Part shown: positions 131 to 22,196 of the stretch, piece by piece
Numbering within the stretch: the stretch's first letter is position 1
How the letters are laid out: each line of letters starts with the position of its first letter
Virus record (IMG/VR): IMGVR_UViG_3300006810_000441
Span: 1-22,341 of that record
DNA: 22,341 nt
From: a virus
Direction: 5' to 3' (one strand)
Program-made: the position numbers and the translations under genes
The notes under the pieces: generated by a model
What the model was told of the DNA's origin: nothing
Databases searched by the model: none
The model's input: only the letters and a program-made list of their open reading frames with translations

Positions 131-979
131 ATGAATAAAAATTGTAAAAACTGTGGTAATTTATTAAATAAACGACAAAAGATGTTTTGTTGTAGGAAAT
201 GTAAAGCTGAATATGAAAAAACTATTGGAAAAAAAGAAATAGTAGATAAAATCAATTCTACATTTAAGAAAAAGTATGGAATGACTCCAATTGAAAGAAA
301 AAATGAAGTTCTGTTAGAAGCGCATGGAACAATTCACGCTTTACAAATAGAATCATCGAACCGAAAAATGAAAAACACGATGAAGGATAGGTATGGATGT
401 GAACAAGCGTTAAAAAATAAAAAATTATTAGATAAGAAAAACAAAACATGTGAACAGATATATGGATCACAAAATGTTTTTAATAATGAAGATGTTAGAA
501 AAAAAGCAAAAGAAACGATATTCAAAAAATACGGAACTGAATATGTTTCACAAAATGACGACATCAAACGTAAAGTGAAGAATACTATGTTTGATCGTTA
601 TGGAGTTGAATGTGCTTTTGAGTTGCCAAATGCTAAATCCCAACGAATATCAAAATTACAACAAACAATATTTGAAAGTGTAAAAAATATACACAGTGAT
701 GCTTTATTAGAACATAGATTGAATGACATCGGAAGATCGGTTGATATTTACATACCATCAAAAAATATAGTAATTGAAGTTAATGGTGATTATTACCATA
801 TGAATCCATCCAAATATTCCCCTAATGATTTTAATAAACGATATAAAATGACAGCTAAAGAAATATGGGAACGTGAAAAAAACAGGTTACATTTAATATC
901 AGAGCATTTAAGTTGTAGTGTAATAGTCATATGGGAATCGGATTGGAAAAATGACAAAAACATAATGAATTATTTATGA
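131..979 (+). CDS. Vsr-like (EDxHD) free-standing homing endonuclease with zinc ribbon and YG repeats
   Basis: The 282-residue protein has three parts. Residues 5-24 form a Cys-rich ribbon (C5, C8, C20, C21, C24). Residues about 44-158 hold five T-x4-Y-G repeats with YG at 49, 88, 111, 134 and 157; the last four are spaced exactly 23 residues apart and are probably DNA-binding helical units. The C-terminal nuclease core has D205, EVNGD at 216-220, H223, WEREKNR at 246-252 and IWESDW at 267-272. That core matches the Vsr-like EDxHD homing endonucleases found in phages. It lies downstream of a terminator and overlaps the next gene by 4 bases (ATGA), so it has settled between tail genes without breaking either. 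No ribosome site is visible before the ATG. The endonuclease call is firm; the target site is unknown and is likely the allelic junction in an uninvaded relative. Confidence 0.88.
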   Translation: MNKNCKNCGNLLNKRQKMFCCRKCKAEYEKTIGKKEIVDKINSTFKKKYGMTPIERKNEVLLEAHGTIHALQIESSNRKMKNTMKDRYGCEQALKNKKLLDKKNKTCEQIYGSQNVFNNEDVRKKAKETIFKKYGTEYVSQNDDIKRKVKNTMFDRYGVECAFELPNAKSQRISKLQQTIFESVKNIHSDALLEHRLNDIGRSVDIYIPSKNIVIEVNGDYYHMNPSKYSPNDFNKRYKMTAKEIWEREKNRLHLISEHLSCSVIVIWESDWKNDKNIMNYL

Positions 980-11172: not shown

Positions 11173-11201
11173 TTGACTTTTACTGAAAAGTGTATTATAT
11201 T
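11173..11201 (+). promoter_or_regulatory. Promoter directly before the DNA polymerase gene
   Basis: TTGACT (11173-11178), a 17-bp spacer and TATATT (11196-11201) make a good promoter. It lies inside the 5' end of the long open frame, which argues that translation starts downstream, at GTG 11209, 7 nt after the -10 box. The string TATATTTG also fits the Bacteroidota -7 consensus TAnnTTTG, so either sigma class is possible. Confidence 0.65.
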
Positions 11202-11208
11202 TGCTGTC

Positions 11209-12576
11209 GTGAGGTATATTGAAGACAGTTTAGGAATACAAGAATTAAGCACCGCCTTGAAAAATAAGGATGTGTTTATGTATTGCATTCCTACGACTAC
11301 CTACAAACATCCCTGTTGCGATAGTTTATCTTTATTATTTATTTTAGATATACAAGAGCGTGAAACCTTTGCGGTTATTTTTAATCATATAGATTCACAG
11401 TTTAATGTAAATTTGTCTGATATAATTCCAGTTCTTAATTTAACCAGAAGCCGTTTTGTCGTAGACAAAAAGAGCTTTAAGCAATATATTGATATCAGCG
11501 ACCTGCTTGACGTTAAGTTTTTAGCGCATGCTATTAATAAAGATTTTAGCATTAATCCAACTTCAGTTCATACATTTTACAAGTATCAGTTTCCTAAATG
11601 TAATACAGTGAATCGGATCGTTCCGATCAATAAACACTATGAAACATTTGAAAAACTATACAGTAATGCTTTTGAAATTTTAAAAACTGAACATAATAAG
11701 TTAAAATTAGACGCTTATATCAATTCTAATAATATTTTGACTGATACATTATACCAAATAGAGAAAAATGGTATATGCGTCAATCCAGGCGACTTTATCA
11801 AGTCATTCAAAGAAGACTCTGTAAAGTTATTAGACGGAAACTTAATTAGATCACAATATAATTTATTTACATCTACTGGAAGACCATCGAATAAGTTTGG
11901 TGGAATAAATTTTGCTGCTTTAAATAAAAAAGATGACAGTAGAAAATGTTTTGTAAGTAGATTTGGAACGAATGGAAAATTGTTTGATTTTGATTTTTCC
12001 GCTTTTCATCCTCATTTAATTTCTAATTTAGTAAATTATGATTTAGAATTCGGAACAAACATCTATGAATATCTTGGTAAACATTATTTAAGTAAAGATA
12101 ACTTAACTGAGTTGGAATTAGCTCATGCTAAGACTCTCACGTTCCGCCAGTTGTATGGAAACGTCGAACCTAAATACAAGTATATACCTTACTTTAAAAA
12201 GTGGATGCAATACATTGAACAACGTTGGAGCTTCTTTTTGGAAAATGGGTATGTTGAAACTCCGATATATAGTAGGCAAATCACGTTGGATCATATTGGT
12301 GATGATGTAAACCCAAGTAAACTTAGTAATTATATTCTACAAGCATATGAAACTGAAGTTGGTTTAACTACCGTATCCAGAATATTAAATTTACTAAAAA
12401 ACAAGAAAAGTAAAGTTATACTTTATACATACGATAGTATTCTAATTGATTTTCATAAAGACGATAGCGTTGATTGTTTACATGAAATCAAGAATGCAAT
12501 GGAGAACAACAAAAAATTTCCAGTAAAAATTAAAGCCGGTGATAATTATAAAGAAATGTTCAATGTAAACATTTAA
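11209..12576 (+). CDS. Compact family A DNA polymerase, exonuclease motifs not recognised
   Basis: The C-terminal two thirds carry the family A (Pol I-like) palm motifs in order, numbered from GTG 11209. STGRPSN (~222-228) matches the TGR-S-P region. DFSAFHPHL (~260-268) is motif A with its catalytic Asp. AKTLTFRQLYG (~306-316) is motif B with Lys and Tyr-Gly. TYDSILIDF (~406-414) is motif C, where the Glu of the usual HDE is Ser. The N-terminal ~170 residues show no D-x-E exonuclease motif and may be a decayed proofreading domain. At about 455 residues it is far shorter than Pol I (928) and lacks a full exonuclease. It lies downstream of the GTAC array. The start is uncertain: the frame is open back to a TTG at 11173 inside the -35 box, and ATG 11278 is another option. 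The T4 gene set normally pairs with a family B polymerase, so this enzyme may be the replicative one or an auxiliary. Confidence 0.8.
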   Translation: MRYIEDSLGIQELSTALKNKDVFMYCIPTTTYKHPCCDSLSLLFILDIQERETFAVIFNHIDSQFNVNLSDIIPVLNLTRSRFVVDKKSFKQYIDISDLLDVKFLAHAINKDFSINPTSVHTFYKYQFPKCNTVNRIVPINKHYETFEKLYSNAFEILKTEHNKLKLDAYINSNNILTDTLYQIEKNGICVNPGDFIKSFKEDSVKLLDGNLIRSQYNLFTSTGRPSNKFGGINFAALNKKDDSRKCFVSRFGTNGKLFDFDFSAFHPHLISNLVNYDLEFGTNIYEYLGKHYLSKDNLTELELAHAKTLTFRQLYGNVEPKYKYIPYFKKWMQYIEQRWSFFLENGYVETPIYSRQITLDHIGDDVNPSKLSNYILQAYETEVGLTTVSRILNLLKNKKSKVILYTYDSILIDFHKDDSVDCLHEIKNAMENNKKFPVKIKAGDNYKEMFNVNI

Positions 12577-14959: not shown

Positions 14960-15316
14960 ATGGCTAAAAAAACTGCTAAAAAAACAACCTCAACTAAAAA
15001 GATTGAGGTAGAAGTCGAAGGAAATACCGACTCCATCATTGCCGACATTGCTGGCATGATCAATAAAGCTAACAAAGAGGGTGGAAATGTTGCTTTTGTA
15101 ATGGGAAATGACAATCCTGATGATCCGACAAAAATTGTTGACTGGGTTCCCAGTGGAAATGATCAATTAGATTTAATAATGTGTAATCGACCTGACGCTG
15201 GTTATCCGGTCGGTCGGATTACGGAAATTACAGGATTAGAACATTCCGGTAAAACATTATTATCTATGCACGCTCTCGGAGACACAAAGAAAAGATGGTA
15301 TTGCTGTGTTTATTGA
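14960..15316 (+). CDS. uvsX: UvsX/RecA-like recombinase, N-terminal part (frame broken)
   Basis: The 118-residue frame begins with a Lys/Thr-rich stretch, then VDWVPSGNDQLDLIM and YPVGRITEITG. The Walker A motif GLEHSGKT is at residues 92-99, as in RecA/UvsX. After ALGDTKK it loses homology, reads RWYCCVY and stops. The expected continuation, DGIAVFIDTE, is present in the +1 frame from 15294. The break lies at a run of four A (15290-15293). Removing one A or adding two restores one protein of about 394 or 395 residues. RecA length in this stretch favours two missing bases. A homopolymer sequencing error is the simplest cause; a real lesion or programmed shift is possible. An A-rich leader and no Shine-Dalgarno site precede the ATG. 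Confidence 0.85.
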   Translation: MAKKTAKKTTSTKKIEVEVEGNTDSIIADIAGMINKANKEGGNVAFVMGNDNPDDPTKIVDWVPSGNDQLDLIMCNRPDAGYPVGRITEITGLEHSGKTLLSMHALGDTKKRWYCCVY

Positions 15317-16145
15317 TACTGAATCATCATTAGATCATAATTTTGTTAGAGCGATTGGTGTTGACTTGGATAAATTATTATATATTTCATGTGATCACGT
15401 TGAAGAAATATTTGAACACATGGAAACTATAATTCAGAAAGTTAGATTATCTAATAAAGATAAGTTAGTGACTATTGTTGTGGATTCTGTAGCCGCTGCT
15501 TCTTGTAAAGCTGAACAGGAGTCTGATTTTGATCAAACTGGATTTGCAACTCAAAAAGCTATAATTATAAGTAAGGCTCTTCGTAAGATTACTCAATTAA
15601 TAGCTAGACAACGTGTAGCATTGATTTTCACCAATCAGTTACGTCTTAACTTGGGTGCTGTATACGGAGATAAATATACAACATCTGGCGGAAAGGCATT
15701 AGGATTTCATGCTAGTTTACGATTGAGATTATCTAAGGCTGGTCAAATTTTGGATAAACCTAAGAAAAACGGTGGTCGTGTAATTGGCATTAAAACTATA
15801 TGTAAGATGATAAAAAACCGACTGGGACCTCCTGATCGAGATCATACGTTTAATCTATTTTTTAATCGTGGCATTGACAATTATGGTGATTGGATAGAAA
15901 CGCTTAAAGATAAAAAAATCATAAAAGGGACTAGAACTCCTTATACATATACGGATACAAATGGTCAAGAAATTCTATTACATAAAGACAAGTTCACGGA
16001 TTTGATGAAATCCGATACAGAACTTCGTGACGAACTGTATAAACATTTATGTGACATTCATATAATGAAATATACATTTCAAGAAGAATGTGCTAGTGAT
16101 GATATATTAGTCGTTGAAGATGACGACGATGATTTAGAAGATTAA
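15306..16145 (+). CDS. uvsX: UvsX/RecA-like recombinase, C-terminal part (frame broken)
   Basis: The frame opens before 15306 and contains FIDTESSLD with the catalytic Glu (residue 6 from GTG 15306), the Walker B strand LVTIVVDSVAAA (Asp at residue 60), and a DNA-binding loop region. The segment ALIFTNQLRLNLG, then GDKYTTSGGKALGFHASLRLRL, is typical of RecA. It ends in an acidic tail EDDDDDLED like that of UvsX. The protein would form filaments on single-stranded DNA and pair it with a homologous duplex, supporting recombination-dependent replication. GTG 15306 lies inside conserved sequence, so it is unlikely to be a natural start. Without repair of the frame the Walker A and B halves would be made separately and be inactive. 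Confidence 0.85.
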   Translation: MFIDTESSLDHNFVRAIGVDLDKLLYISCDHVEEIFEHMETIIQKVRLSNKDKLVTIVVDSVAAASCKAEQESDFDQTGFATQKAIIISKALRKITQLIARQRVALIFTNQLRLNLGAVYGDKYTTSGGKALGFHASLRLRLSKAGQILDKPKKNGGRVIGIKTICKMIKNRLGPPDRDHTFNLFFNRGIDNYGDWIETLKDKKIIKGTRTPYTYTDTNGQEILLHKDKFTDLMKSDTELRDELYKHLCDIHIMKYTFQEECASDDILVVEDDDDDLED

Positions 16146-18370: not shown

Positions 18371-19201
18371 ATGTCTAATAACAACGAGCGAGACACGTTA
18401 ACAAAATTTGGTAGTTCATTTCAAAGTAAATGTATTGCCAGTATATTCACAGATAAAGAGTTCCTTACGCAAGTGATGGATATTGTTCATTTGGATTTCT
18501 TTGAAAATTCCGCACATAAGTGGATTTTGAATGAGATCATTGAATATTTCAAACAATATACTGAATTGCCAACGCTTGAAGTATTCAAGCACAAGATGAA
18601 AGACATCGACAATAAGGTGTTATATGAAAGCATTGTAAATCAGTTAAGAGCGATCACAAATTCAACAACTTCTTCTGATTTGGTTTATATCAAAGAACAA
18701 TTTTTGGAATTTTGCAAAAATCAAAAATTAAAATGTGCTATCATAGAAAGTGCTGATTTGCTTCAAAGTGGTGAATATGAACAAATCAAACATGTTGTGG
18801 ATGAAGCTTTAAAGGCTGGAATGGAACGTGATGATGGACATGACTATTTAAACGAAATTGATGAACGTTTAGTTGATGATGCTCGTGATACGGTAAAGAC
18901 AAATTGGAAAGCCATTGATGATTTAATGGATGGTGGATTGGGCCCTGGAGAGTTAGGAGTATTTTGTGCTAGTGCGGGTGCGGGAAAATGTATAGGCCCT
19001 AATACCGAAATCGACCTTCAGTATGAAGAACTTGGAATTGAGATACAAGGTAATACCGGAAATCCTTATGTATTGTGGATTGATCCGTTTAAAGAATATG
19101 ATGTATCTGGAATAGTAGATGGCGTTACTTCGTGTGTTGGTTGGCGAATATACAATGTTTTATGGGAACTTGACAATATTAGAATTAACTCCCAAACATA
19201 A
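18371..19201 (+). CDS. gp41/DnaB-type replicative helicase, N-terminal half fused to N-intein
   Basis: Residues 1-206 are the N-terminal half of a T4 gp41-like helicase: a helical N-terminal domain, a linker with WKAIDDLMDGGLGPGELGVF, and the Walker A start CASAGAGK. Instead of Ser/Thr the next residue is C207, opening an intein N-fragment (CIGPNTEIDL matches intein block A) that runs 70 residues to the stop. The Ser completing the P-loop is on the other piece, encoded from 20556. The expected product of trans-splicing has 206 + 260 = 466 residues, close to T4 gp41 (475), and would unwind the lagging-strand template as a hexamer. Most of the N-fragment after its first ~14 residues (GNTGNPYVLWIDPF and onward) matches no canonical intein block I know. 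Alone this half cannot bind ATP properly. Confidence 0.87.
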   Translation: MSNNNERDTLTKFGSSFQSKCIASIFTDKEFLTQVMDIVHLDFFENSAHKWILNEIIEYFKQYTELPTLEVFKHKMKDIDNKVLYESIVNQLRAITNSTTSSDLVYIKEQFLEFCKNQKLKCAIIESADLLQSGEYEQIKHVVDEALKAGMERDDGHDYLNEIDERLVDDARDTVKTNWKAIDDLMDGGLGPGELGVFCASAGAGKCIGPNTEIDLQYEELGIEIQGNTGNPYVLWIDPFKEYDVSGIVDGVTSCVGWRIYNVLWELDNIRINSQT

Positions 19202-19237
19202 AACCAATAAAAATTATGTTTGATAATATATATTGAC

Positions 19238-20176
19238 ATGGAATTATTAAAATGTAAAATCTGTGGAATAGAACGTCGTAGTTTAGTAACTCATTTGACT
19301 AAAGTTCATAAAATAACTGGAAAACAATATAAGGAATTGTATGGTGATTGTAAATTAATATTGGTATCCGATGAAACTAAATTGAAGCTTAGTAAGTCTA
19401 ATAAACGATGGTGTTCTTCTGAGGAAAATAGAAAGAAATTATCCGAGCGTGCCAAAAACGGAGGAAGTATATTCACTGTTAATTATTGGATTAAACGTGG
19501 ATATTCATTGGAAGATGCAAAATGTAAAATTTCTGAAATACAGATTGAGAACGCGAAAAAATCAACTGACTCATTTGATAAATCAAGAAGTTGTTTCTGC
19601 GTCGATTATTGGGTTAATAAGGGATTTTCTATAGAAGAATCAAAAACGGAAGTTTCTAAATTACAAAAAGAACTAACAAAACGATCGTCGAAATTTAAAG
19701 GAAAAATTAGAACAGACGAATCAAAGATGAAAATATCAAAATCCATGACAGAACATATTAATTCAGTTGGTGCTAGCGAATGGTCTTCTCATTTTGGTGA
19801 TTTCAATGGTTCTTCTATTTTAGAAGACTCTGTATTTGACTTTGTTAATGGGAAGTTTCCTGGTGTCAAACGACATGTTGATATTTCACATTATGTAGTG
19901 GATATATTAATAGATAATATAATAATTGAGGTTAATGGTGATTTGTGGCATGCAAATCCGATTAAGTATTTAGAAAACGACATTATAAATGAGTCTATAT
20001 TGAACATTACCGCTGGAGAACGATGGGAACGTGAAAAAAATAGAACTAATATATTAGAGTCGCTTGGTTATATTGTATATGTTATATGGGAACATGATTG
20101 GAAAAATAATCGTAAAAATGAAGAAAATAAAGTAATTAAATTTTTATATGAAAATAATAGTAAAAACTGTAAATAA
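19238..20176 (+). CDS. Vsr-like (EDxHD) homing endonuclease inside the fractured helicase locus
   Basis: From ATG 19238 (a TTG at 19220 is in frame but adds nothing recognisable) the protein has 312 residues. Residues 6-24 form a C2H2 finger (C6, C9, H19, H24). Two 41-residue repeats follow, each with Y-W-(I/V)-x2-G-(Y/F)-S-x-E (first at ~79, second at ~120). Next is a NUMOD-like stretch TDESKMKISKSM. The Vsr-like core has EVNGDLWHANP (from E231), GERWEREKNR and VIWEHDW. The same core occurs in the endonuclease at 131-979. This type of enzyme with intein halves on both sides is the known fractured-gene arrangement: it would cut an intact helicase gene at the P-loop codons and be copied in with the intein. 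The gene starts 36 bases after the N-half stop and overlaps the C-half by 29 bases. Confidence 0.9.
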   Translation: MELLKCKICGIERRSLVTHLTKVHKITGKQYKELYGDCKLILVSDETKLKLSKSNKRWCSSEENRKKLSERAKNGGSIFTVNYWIKRGYSLEDAKCKISEIQIENAKKSTDSFDKSRSCFCVDYWVNKGFSIEESKTEVSKLQKELTKRSSKFKGKIRTDESKMKISKSMTEHINSVGASEWSSHFGDFNGSSILEDSVFDFVNGKFPGVKRHVDISHYVVDILIDNIIIEVNGDLWHANPIKYLENDIINESILNITAGERWEREKNRTNILESLGYIVYVIWEHDWKNNRKNEENKVIKFLYENNSKNCK

Positions 20177-21338
20177 AAAAGTAAAAATAAAAGATATATT
20201 TGATGGGGTTGGCATTCCTAATGAGGAACATGCTTCAAAAGCGCCACCAATAAACTTACGGGTAAAGACTCCATATGGTTATAAACGTATAGCAAATATG
20301 TTCAGAACTGAGCGTCAGAAAACCGTCACTACTTACTTCGGAAACAACAAAACTTTAAAAACGTCAGATAACCATAGGATAAAATCAAATGGCGATTGGG
20401 TATATGTTAAAGATTTGCGAGTTGGTCAAAAAGTTGAAACATTAAGCGACAACACTAAAGTAATAAAGAAAATAACAGGAAGAGAAGAAATTTTATATGA
20501 TATTAGTGTAGAAGATGTTCATTGTTATTATTCAAATGGAATATTGAGTCATAATTCTTGGTGTTTAAACAAGGTTGGAGTTGAAGCGTTAAAGCAAGGA
20601 AAAAACGTGGTTCACTTCACAATGGAACTTCAACAAAAATATGTTGGTAGACGATATGATTGTTGTTTTACTGGAGTTGACTTTCAAAACATCGTAAGTC
20701 ACAAAGAACAAGTATATCAAGAATTGAAAAATATAAATTCGTGGTTAAAAATAAAATACTTTCCGATCAAAACTGTATCAGCATTATCTTTAAAAAATTA
20801 CATTGAACGTATTCAGATGTTGAGTGGCGAAAAGGTAGATTTGATGATTGTGGATTATGCTGATATTTTGAAACCTGTTGCTGCTGAACGTAACAGCAAT
20901 TCATATAGTGAAGCTGGAGGAATTTATGAAGAATTACGTGGGGTTGCTGGAGAGTTACAAATTCCATGTTGGACAGCGTCACAAACGAATCGTGGTTCCG
21001 CTTCTGAGGATGTTATTGAAGCTGGAAGTATATCAGACAGTTTCAGAAAAATTATGACCGCTGATTTCGTAATGAGTATATCTCGTAAGACAGAGGATAA
21101 GTTACAAAATACAGCAAGAGCACACGTTATAAAAAACCGTTTTGGTGCGGATGGTTGTACATTCAACAGCTTTTTTGATGCTTCTTGTGGTAATATAAAC
21201 ATCTATGATAGAAATGACCCTGAAAGTGCTAAATTGCAATCGAAAATGGCCGACGGAGAAAATGCTGCTAAACGAAGAGTTCAAGACATATGGAATAAAT
21301 CAAAAAACGACGAAGAAAATGATTTCGATCTCGGATAA
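20148..21338 (+). CDS. C-intein fused to the C-terminal half of the gp41/DnaB-type helicase
   Basis: Residues 1-136 are the intein C-fragment and residues 137-396 the helicase. The intein part has LRVKTPYGYKRIANMF, block B (LKTSDNHRI, S-x-x-H), VKDLRVGQKVE, block F (YDISVEDVHCYYSNG) and the terminal His135-Asn136 before Ser137. Ser137-Trp restores GAGK-SW of Walker A. The extein then shows HFTMELQQ with the catalytic Glu, Walker B LMIVDYADIL (Asp 236), ASQTNRGSASEDV (sensor Gln) and KNRFGADG near the arginine-finger region, ending in an acidic tail. Block B on this piece means the intein is split unusually early, as in AceL-TerL and VidaL T4Lh-1. The start lies inside the endonuclease gene (29-base overlap), with no ribosome site seen. 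Confidence 0.9.
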   Translation: MKIIVKTVNKKVKIKDIFDGVGIPNEEHASKAPPINLRVKTPYGYKRIANMFRTERQKTVTTYFGNNKTLKTSDNHRIKSNGDWVYVKDLRVGQKVETLSDNTKVIKKITGREEILYDISVEDVHCYYSNGILSHNSWCLNKVGVEALKQGKNVVHFTMELQQKYVGRRYDCCFTGVDFQNIVSHKEQVYQELKNINSWLKIKYFPIKTVSALSLKNYIERIQMLSGEKVDLMIVDYADILKPVAAERNSNSYSEAGGIYEELRGVAGELQIPCWTASQTNRGSASEDVIEAGSISDSFRKIMTADFVMSISRKTEDKLQNTARAHVIKNRFGADGCTFNSFFDASCGNINIYDRNDPESAKLQSKMADGENAAKRRVQDIWNKSKNDEENDFDLG

Positions 21339-21347
21339 AAATAAAAT

Positions 21348-21367
21348 TCTTAATATTTATATTAAGA
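21348..21367 (+). promoter_or_regulatory. 20-bp palindrome before the ribbon-helix-helix gene (candidate operator)
   Basis: TCTTAATAT-TT-ATATTAAGA is a perfect inverted repeat of 9 bp arms (21348-21356 and 21359-21367). It contains the late-type 8-mer ATATTTAT (21353-21360) and ends within the ribosome site AAGAAAGG. Ribbon-helix-helix proteins commonly bind such palindromes at their own promoters, so autoregulation is plausible. As RNA it could also fold and partly cover the ribosome site. Confidence 0.5.
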
Positions 21368-21376
21368 AAGGTTGAT

Positions 21377-21559
21377 ATGGCTACTCACAAAACAAAAAAC
21401 AAAACAAACTCTACCTTTTCGTTATCTGACGATTTGGTAGAGGAATTTAATTCTGTAATACGTGAACAATGTGTTAATAAAAGCGCGTTGGTTGAAAAAT
21501 TAATTCGTGAGTGGTTATTAAAACAAAATCATGAGCGGAGTATACAAGATAGTAAATAA
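21377..21559 (+). CDS. Small ribbon-helix-helix (CopG/Arc-like) DNA-binding protein
   Basis: The 60-residue protein has a Lys/Thr-rich tip and then the ribbon-helix-helix pattern: strand NSTFSLS, helix 1 DDLVEEFNSVIREQC, the turn N-K-S and helix 2 ALVEKLIREWLLKQ. Such proteins dimerise and bind DNA through the paired strands. The ribosome site AAGAAAGG lies 5 nt before the ATG, and a palindrome that may be its operator sits immediately upstream. The last ~29 bases overlap the GIY-YIG gene; the tail NHERSIQDSK may not be ancestral if that insertion replaced the original end. Confidence 0.75.
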   Translation: MATHKTKNKTNSTFSLSDDLVEEFNSVIREQCVNKSALVEKLIREWLLKQNHERSIQDSK

Positions 21560-22196
21560 TGTAAATGGAAAATTCTATATAGGAAGCACCACTAGAAAAA
21601 TATCAAAACGTTGGCAAGAACATCTGAATAAGTTGCGAAAGGGAACTCATAGTAATTGTCATTTACAGAGGTCATATGATAAATACGGTGAAAAATCATT
21701 TGATGTTGAAACTCTTATTGAGTGTTCGCCATCCGATGTTTTGATACATGAACAGAAATATATAAATGAATTGACTCCTGATTATAATATATGTAAAACT
21801 GCTGGGAATACATATGGAATAAAACTATCAGATGATGTTCGTAAAAAAATGAGCGAATCCAGGCGTGGTAAAAATAATCCGTTTTATGGAAAACAACATA
21901 CAAAGGAGGTCATGGATGATCTTATTAAGCAACAAAAAGAAAGAGGTCAATGGAAAGGAACTGATAATCCTAAATTTGGAAAAGGACATGAAATTACAGG
22001 AAAAAATAACCCATCCTACAAGGGAGACTTTATATTTAAACATCCTATTTATGGAACTGAAATTTGTCATCAGCAATTTTTAATTAAAAAATACAATTTG
22101 TGTGGAAGTGCTATATCAAATATTTGTAATGGAAAACGAAACAAACATAATGGTTGGATATGTCTTGGTAAATCCGATGGTTTGGATTTAGGATAA
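21531..22196 (+). CDS. GIY-YIG homing endonuclease with NUMOD3 repeats
   Basis: The 221-residue protein starts with the GIY-YIG nuclease: G-V-Y at residues 3-5, Y-I-G at 16-18, Arg27 and catalytic Glu74 in IHEQKYINEL, then NICKTAGNTYG. Next come NUMOD3-type minor-groove binding repeats (RRGKNNPFYGKQHTKE, GTDNPKFGKGHE, GKNNPSYKGD; residues ~112-170). The C-terminal region (FLIKKYNLCGSAISNICNGKRNKHNGW) is an IENR1/NUMOD1-like helix-turn-helix that reads the target. This is the I-TevI / SegA layout. It is free-standing and overlaps the previous gene by 29 bases. Together with the two EDxHD enzymes it makes three homing endonucleases in 22 kb. Confidence 0.92.
   Translation: MSGVYKIVNNVNGKFYIGSTTRKISKRWQEHLNKLRKGTHSNCHLQRSYDKYGEKSFDVETLIECSPSDVLIHEQKYINELTPDYNICKTAGNTYGIKLSDDVRKKMSESRRGKNNPFYGKQHTKEVMDDLIKQQKERGQWKGTDNPKFGKGHEITGKNNPSYKGDFIFKHPIYGTEICHQQFLIKKYNLCGSAISNICNGKRNKHNGWICLGKSDGLDLG

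What the first reader, a model, noticed from the sequence alone, without database searches (positions are those of the whole stretch)
18371..21338. Replicative helicase gene broken into two genes joined by a split intein, with a homing endonuclease in the break
Seen: a gp41/DnaB-like N-half ends in GAGK-Cys and an intein block A, then a stop. A Vsr-like endonuclease gene follows, then a gene that opens with intein blocks and ends the intein in SHN before Ser-Trp and the rest of the helicase. Known: the fractured-gene arrangement from environmental phage data pairs split inteins with this endonuclease family. Inference: the two proteins trans-splice to a 466-residue helicase, and the endonuclease spreads the whole cassette.
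Basis: partly seen in the sequence, partly recalled or inferred. Interest (0 to 1): 0.9.

Follow-up and report, generated by a model that had tools for sequence, protein, structure and literature searches.

The report
Phage helicase gene split by intein
This phage's essential replication helicase is encoded as two separate genes that should be stitched together by a split self-splicing protein element (intein), with a selfish DNA-cutting enzyme gene in the gap; the arrangement is a known kind, but relatives reveal that the cutting enzyme's gene usually carries a copy of its own target site just upstream, probably a switch that restrains it.

Summary
Window 18371-19201 encodes a DnaB/gp41-like helicase N-half (206 aa) plus a 70-aa intein N-fragment; 19238-20176 an intact Vsr-fold homing endonuclease (HEN); 20148-21338 a 136-aa intein C-fragment plus the helicase C-half (260 aa). 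Dozens of relatives have the same helicase intact, joined exactly at GK|SW, so the exteins make 466 aa. Three near-identical contigs from other metagenomes rule out an assembly join. About 40 distinct relatives carry the intein at this site: most split, several contiguous, some with the HEN lost or reduced to a 3' stub. Intein and HEN are under purifying selection, and in some pairs the cassette is far less diverged than the helicase around it, the mark of homing. This is the 'fractured gene' class (Dassa 2009, paper not held), with unusual geometry: IntN 70 aa against 15-35 (atypical) or 100-120 (canonical). New: in relatives, DNA about 50-80 bp upstream of the HEN carries a copy of the insertion site, the P-loop codons (rank 1 of 1021 windows of the gene; validated on unseen loci; absent where the HEN is lost), resembling the I-TevI operator. 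The window has lost this copy by a 17-bp deletion. Trans-splicing and HEN activity remain untested.

The parts
18371..18988 (+). N-extein: N-terminal 206 aa of DnaB/gp41-like replicative helicase, ending in the P-loop GAGK
   Evidence: PHROG 19 E 2e-27; ends exactly where the intact gene continues in relatives
18989..19198 (+). IntN: 70-aa N-terminal split-intein fragment, Cys1 then stop at 19199-19201
   Evidence: conserved to about residue 65 in over 30 split relatives and part of contiguous inteins in L103, L109, L114, L124; dN/dS 0.03-0.2 in most relatives' pairs
19185..19237 (+). IntN end and HEN leader; place where relatives carry a copy of the P-loop insertion-site DNA; here lost by a 17-bp gap at about 19191/19192 relative to L267
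19238..20176 (+). Vsr-fold (I-Bth0305I-like) homing endonuclease gene, 312 aa, intact
   Evidence: AF2 model pLDDT 86, best Foldseek match I-Bth0305I 3r3p, then Vsr; 21-member alignment with conserved E/GDxWHxNP and WE motifs
20148..20555 (+). IntC: 136-aa C-terminal split-intein fragment, ends SHN; its ORF start overlaps the HEN 3' end
   Evidence: gp41-1 intein E 2e-9, VidaL E 4e-7 by profile; invariant block-B His and His-Asn
20556..21335 (+). C-extein: remaining 260 aa of the helicase beginning Ser-Trp; stop 21336-21338
   Evidence: DnaB_C E 3e-13; PHROG 19 E 3e-39; colinear with intact relatives

Best explanation
A 'fractured gene'. The replicative helicase is made as two polypeptides. 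IntN (70 aa) and IntC (136 aa) associate into one HINT domain and trans-splice through Cys1, the terminal His-Asn and Ser+1, giving a 466-residue helicase with an intact Walker A (GAGK-SW). The HEN between the halves recognises the intein-less P-loop DNA of a co-infecting phage's helicase gene, cuts it, and repair copies IntN-HEN-IntC into the break. The insertion point lies inside the catalytic P-loop, so only precise loss is tolerated. Shown here: the gene anatomy, the exact empty site, conservation of splicing residues, purifying selection, lateral movement of the cassette in relatives, HEN loss in some. Inferred: splicing, target recognition and cutting. In relatives the HEN's gene is probably held in check by the HEN binding a copy of its target upstream of its ORF; the window has lost that copy.
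For: Exact anatomy; intact relatives contiguous at GK|SW; no assembly join; single, broken helicase in 15 relatives' contigs; about 40 relatives with the intein at the same site, contiguous in L103, L109, L114, L124 and also L285/L286 and L289; AF2 HINT model pLDDT 96.5 with VidaL as best Foldseek match and VIA Z 19.8 to VidaL, 20 to VMA inteins; HEN fold I-Bth0305I/Vsr; dN/dS 0.03-0.2 for IntN, 0.05-0.17 for IntC, 0.07-0.30 for HEN in most pairs with usable dS; cassette less diverged than exteins at four-fold sites; HEN 3' stubs left in L011 and L105.
Against: No experiment shows splicing or cleavage. The record is a 22-kb fragment, so a second helicase elsewhere in this phage cannot be excluded directly. 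Close relatives of the window itself are either near-identical or about 60% identical, so selection and mobility were measured in other members, not in this lineage. Foldseek E for the HEN is only 7e-3, though ranks 1, 2, 6 and 8 are I-Bth0305I or Vsr.
Confidence: 0.92

Rival explanations
1. Broken, decaying helicase: the insertion destroyed the gene and the halves are relics.
For: Two ORFs, neither a complete helicase; uvsX upstream also looks broken in this record.
Against: Low dN/dS in exteins and intein pieces of relatives; the same split state recurs in over 30 distinct loci, and 15 contigs examined hold no other helicase; the uvsX frameshift is private to the window and absent from three near-identical contigs.
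Confidence: 0.03
2. Assembly chimera or join of two phages.
For: Metagenomic contig.
Against: Three contigs from other metagenomes carry the same join at 99.4-99.9% identity; dozens of independent contigs have the same order.
Confidence: 0.01
3. Non-covalent assembly: the halves work together without splicing.
For: Splicing was not tested here; some nucleotide-binding proteins tolerate splits (general knowledge).
Against: The break is inside the P-loop, so no ATP site forms without ligation; Cys1, block-B His, His-Asn and Ser/Thr+1 are conserved.
Confidence: 0.03
4. For the upstream site copy only: an insertion footprint (a relic of how the HEN entered) rather than an operator.
For: Resembles the flanking exon; lost in some lineages, including the window; in PGGGK-type relatives L104 and L107 only part of it seems left.
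Against: Kept at 50-80 bp before most HEN starts while HENs differ to about 30-40% identity; reading frame varies, so selection is on DNA; present in 20 of 29 HEN-bearing loci and 1 of 11 HEN-less ones; it follows each lineage's own P-loop residues although third codon positions have diverged.
Confidence: 0.3

Closest known systems
Fractured genes with split inteins and a Vsr-like HEN (Dassa et al. 2009, NAR 37:2560; cited in PMC13014065 and PMC7090010; paper itself not held)
   Same: Host gene in two ORFs, split intein across the break, free-standing HEN of the same fold between them, phage metagenome origin.
   Different: From memory that set includes gp41 helicase loci; whether it had this P-loop site or a target copy upstream of the HEN could not be checked.
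VidaL atypical split intein (PDB 6vgv)
   Same: Best Foldseek match to the contiguous relative; split near the N-terminus; Cys-dependent.
   Different: Known natural atypical IntN are 15-35 aa with the split right after strand 2 or helix 1 (PMC13014065); here IntN is 70 aa and carries an extra strand-helix insert before the split. Divergent relatives at the same site (L189, L191, L198) do have 27-34-aa IntN.
gp41-1 and gp41-8 split inteins
   Same: Also in T4-like helicases (memory); sequence relatives (gp41-1 E 2e-9). The second break seen in some relatives (SQxNR|S) looks like the gp41-8 site (memory).
   Different: Canonical split (about 90 + 40 aa) at another place in the intein and another site in the helicase.
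I-Bth0305I homing endonuclease (PDB 3r3p)
   Same: Closest solved fold to the HEN, Vsr-like catalytic domain.
   Different: This HEN has an added N-terminal helical region with repeated YWxxxGxSxxxAK-type motifs.
I-TevI operator (Edgell et al. 2004; reviewed in PMC2988022)
   Same: Copy of the homing site just upstream of the endonuclease ORF, beside promoter-like AT-rich DNA.
   Different: GIY-YIG enzyme inside a group I intron; here a Vsr-fold enzyme in a split-intein gene; binding and repression untested.

Membership tests
Fractured gene (split intein + HEN) | Host gene in two ORFs that join exactly at an intact homologue's conserved site | tested here: met
Fractured gene (split intein + HEN) | N-ORF ends in IntN and C-ORF begins with IntC, with conserved splicing residues | tested here: met
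Fractured gene (split intein + HEN) | Free-standing HEN of Vsr-like/I-Bth0305I fold between the halves | tested here: met
Fractured gene (split intein + HEN) | Protein trans-splicing occurs | not testable with these tools
   needs co-expression
Atypical split intein (VidaL / AceL-TerL type) | IntN of 15-35 aa | tested here: not met
   IntN 70 aa, conserved to about residue 65; definition from PMC13014065
Canonical split intein | IntN about 100-120 aa, IntC about 35-50 aa | tested here: not met
   70 + 136 aa; definition from PMC13014065
HINT-fold intein | HINT fold with N- and C-terminal splice motifs | tested here: met
   model of contiguous relative L124 pLDDT 96.5; Pfam HINT/intein hits for the window
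I-Bth0305I (EDxHD) HEN family | Vsr-like catalytic fold | tested here: met
   Foldseek top hit 3r3p, prob 1.00, TMt 0.76
I-Bth0305I (EDxHD) HEN family | EDxHD catalytic residues in register | tested here: inconclusive
   conserved E231, D235, H238, E285; not superposed residue by residue
Autorepressing HEN (I-TevI type) | Homing-site copy upstream of the HEN ORF, in this window | tested here: not met
   17-bp gap at the place of the copy; met in most relatives
Autorepressing HEN (I-TevI type) | HEN binds the copy, does not cut it, and represses its promoter | not testable with these tools
   needs binding, cleavage and reporter assays

The most novel reading that the evidence does not exclude
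The endonucleases of fractured helicase genes are autoregulated: each carries, a few dozen bases upstream of its ORF, a copy of its own homing site (the P-loop codons around GK|S) that it binds but does not cut, an operator evolved in parallel to that of I-TevI. The window is a natural operator-loss variant.
Probability: 0.5. Interest if true: 0.65.

Novelty: new variant of a known kind. Interest (0 to 1): 0.5.

Why it matters
It adds a large, well-sampled family of natural split inteins with an unusual break point, sited inside the P-loop of an essential enzyme, with contiguous, split-with-HEN, split-with-HEN-stub and split-without-HEN stages all present, so the birth and decay of fractured genes can be followed. 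The target-site copy upstream of the endonuclease makes a direct prediction about its regulation and its recognition sequence. The long IntN may also be of use for protein ligation.

Tried and rejected
Plain identity of the junction 18-mer to the HEN leader was not significant (combined p 0.21) because synonymous positions differ; a first PSSM ranking without per-window calibration was swamped by AT-rich windows (junction rank 76 of 1015). The calibrated version and the pattern count were then used, and new loci were fetched as a check. A conserved RNA hairpin in the leader was considered and dropped: z -0.4 to -2.0. No target copy was evident by eye before the HEN of the second helicase break, and it was not general in HENs of other genes (2 of 22). 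PDB sequence search with the HEN gave nothing meaningful. Dassa 2009 (gkp095) and gkr669 are not held, so priority for the P-loop site and the leader copy is unchecked; a search of the held library found no paper on it. No cultured phage with this IntC in its helicase was found: among the 20 of 28 records listed, the informative annotations are terminases.

Full report
Anatomy. The window is a complete 22,341-base virus record. The helicase N-half (18371-19201) ends in GAGK, then Cys1 and a 70-aa intein fragment. The HEN ORF (19238-20176, 312 aa) follows, and its last 29 bases overlap the C-half ORF (20148-21338), which opens with 136 aa of intein ending SHN and continues as Ser-Trp and 260 aa of helicase. 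PHROG 19 (DnaB-like helicase) is hit by both halves, at profile positions 161-366 and 368-613, that is, in series.

Empty site and authenticity. A scan of viral contigs gave about 69 relatives in which the N-extein match runs without a gap into the C-extein match, at GK|SW. Joined exteins are 466 aa. Contigs from three other metagenomes are 99.4-99.9% identical through the cassette, so it is not a chimera. In 15 relatives' contigs of 24 to 297 kb the only clear helicase is the broken one; these are fragments, so this is strong but not final.

The intein. About 40 distinct loci carry this intein at the same site. It is one contiguous ORF in L103, L109, L114, L124, and also in L285/L286 and L289, and split in the rest. 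The contiguous forms show that the whole 70-aa IntN, not only block A, is part of the fold. The AF2 model of L124's intein (193 aa, pLDDT 96.5, pTM 0.88) is a HINT domain in which residues 21-52 add strands and a short helix, and the split falls in the loop before the strand at 58-68. Best Foldseek match is VidaL 6vgv; VIA Z is 19.8 to VidaL, 20 to VMA inteins. The profile of IntC finds gp41-1 (2e-9) and VidaL (4e-7) in the PDB by sequence. Natural atypical split inteins are described with IntN of 15-35 aa and canonical ones with 100-120 (PMC13014065), so this geometry lies between. Divergent relatives L189, L191 and L198 at the same site have IntN of 27-34 aa.

The HEN. The window's HEN model (pLDDT 86, pTM 0.44) has I-Bth0305I as top match (E 7e-3, TMt 0.76), then Vsr. 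E231, D235, H238 and E285 are conserved. The same HEN plus IntC pairing occurs in other phage genes, several at a P-loop GK| site: terminase (L192), gp46/SbcC-like (L209, L215, L219, L226, L227, L229), an AAA protein (L212), a UvsW-like helicase (L232); also UvsX (L199) and NrdA (L211) (gene names by reading the translations). Split helicases without a HEN also exist (L005, L010, L097, L119, L257, L278, L284), and L011 and L105 keep only its 3' end.

Selection and movement. In relatives' pairs with measurable dS, dN/dS is mostly 0.03-0.2 for IntN (0.40 in one pair with very few changes), 0.05-0.17 for IntC and 0.07-0.30 for HEN (0.44 for a 61-codon stub). Between L092 and L094, four-fold sites differ at 0.57-0.62 in the exteins, right up to the junction, but 0.16 in IntN, 0.37 in HEN and 0.44 in IntC; L090/L092 and L082/L005 behave alike. 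The cassette is younger in these genes than the genes themselves, as homing predicts.

A copy of the target upstream of the HEN. Some N-halves end in a Walker-A-like peptide just before the stop (GSGKTT in L006, GIGKTS in L012). At DNA level the P-loop pattern GG(N4)GGNAAR occurs in the HEN leader of 37 of 50 helicase records (dinucleotide shuffles: 1.2 expected) and 2 of 22 HENs elsewhere (0.6 expected); many of the 50 are repeats of one locus. After removing repeats (26 loci), every 18-nt window of the helicase gene was compared with the leaders, calibrated by shuffles: the window -16 to +2 around the intein junction ranks first of 1021 with combined Z 17.7, and all top ten windows overlap the junction; in the control set the junction ranks 45th. 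Related loci inflate Z, the rank less so. In loci fetched afterwards, the three independent HEN-bearing ones have the copy and the four HEN-less ones do not (Fisher p 0.03); over all loci 20 of 29 against 1 of 11 (p 0.001; the counts themselves were made by hand). The copy sits 50-80 bp before most HEN starts, in varying reading frame, and its variable residues follow each lineage's own P-loop (23 of 60 against 10 by permutation, p 5e-5, not corrected for relatedness; the +1 residue of L187 and L190 was assumed to be Ser), while third positions of the G, G and K codons differ in 36 of 60. I-TevI has such a homing-site-like operator upstream of its ORF and represses itself; [quoted passage not shown] I read the copy as an operator (about 0.5) over an insertion footprint (about 0.3). 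The window's closest copy-bearing relative, L267 (HEN 51%, IntC 70%), has SGNGKS there; the window has a 17-bp gap at that very place.

Limits. Splicing, cutting and repression are not shown. Dassa 2009 could not be read, so what is new relative to it is uncertain; gp41-8 site identity is from memory.

Noticed in passing
window 14960-16145: uvsX/recA reads as two overlapping ORFs because of a frameshift near 15277; L002, L003 and L004 are intact there, so it is private to this record and may be an assembly error.
   Followed up: yes
window 21296-22172: A GIY-YIG HEN (ORF 21531-22196) and a small RHH-like ORF form an 878-bp insert just after the helicase, absent from near-identical L003; the helicase C-terminus also differs there, as after co-conversion.
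   Followed up: partly
window 131-979: Another HEN-like ORF with DUF7487 N-terminus and Vsr-like E/GDYYHxNP and WESDW motifs.
   Followed up: no
window 11173-12576: Family-A DNA polymerase ORF of only 467 aa, TTG start; Pfam matches only its C-terminal part.
   Followed up: no
L011, L086, L089, L097, L099, L103, L109, L110, L114, L121, L126, L129, L174: Helicases broken a second time, by a canonical split intein at SQxxR|S, in several with its own different HEN: helicase in three pieces (two where the first intein is contiguous).
   Followed up: partly
L192, L209, L212, L215, L219, L226, L227, L229, L232: Related HEN plus split intein at the P-loop GK| of other ATPases, suggesting a HEN lineage that tracks P-loop codons.
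   Followed up: partly
L104:4105-4125, L107:4100-4125: CCACCGGG and CCGCCGGG before TATTTATAATAAA look like an inverted partial copy of the PGG codons seen upright in L115 and L118.
   Followed up: no
L006:6275-7891: The nrdA-like gene downstream appears fractured too (ends in an intein-like N-fragment).
   Followed up: no
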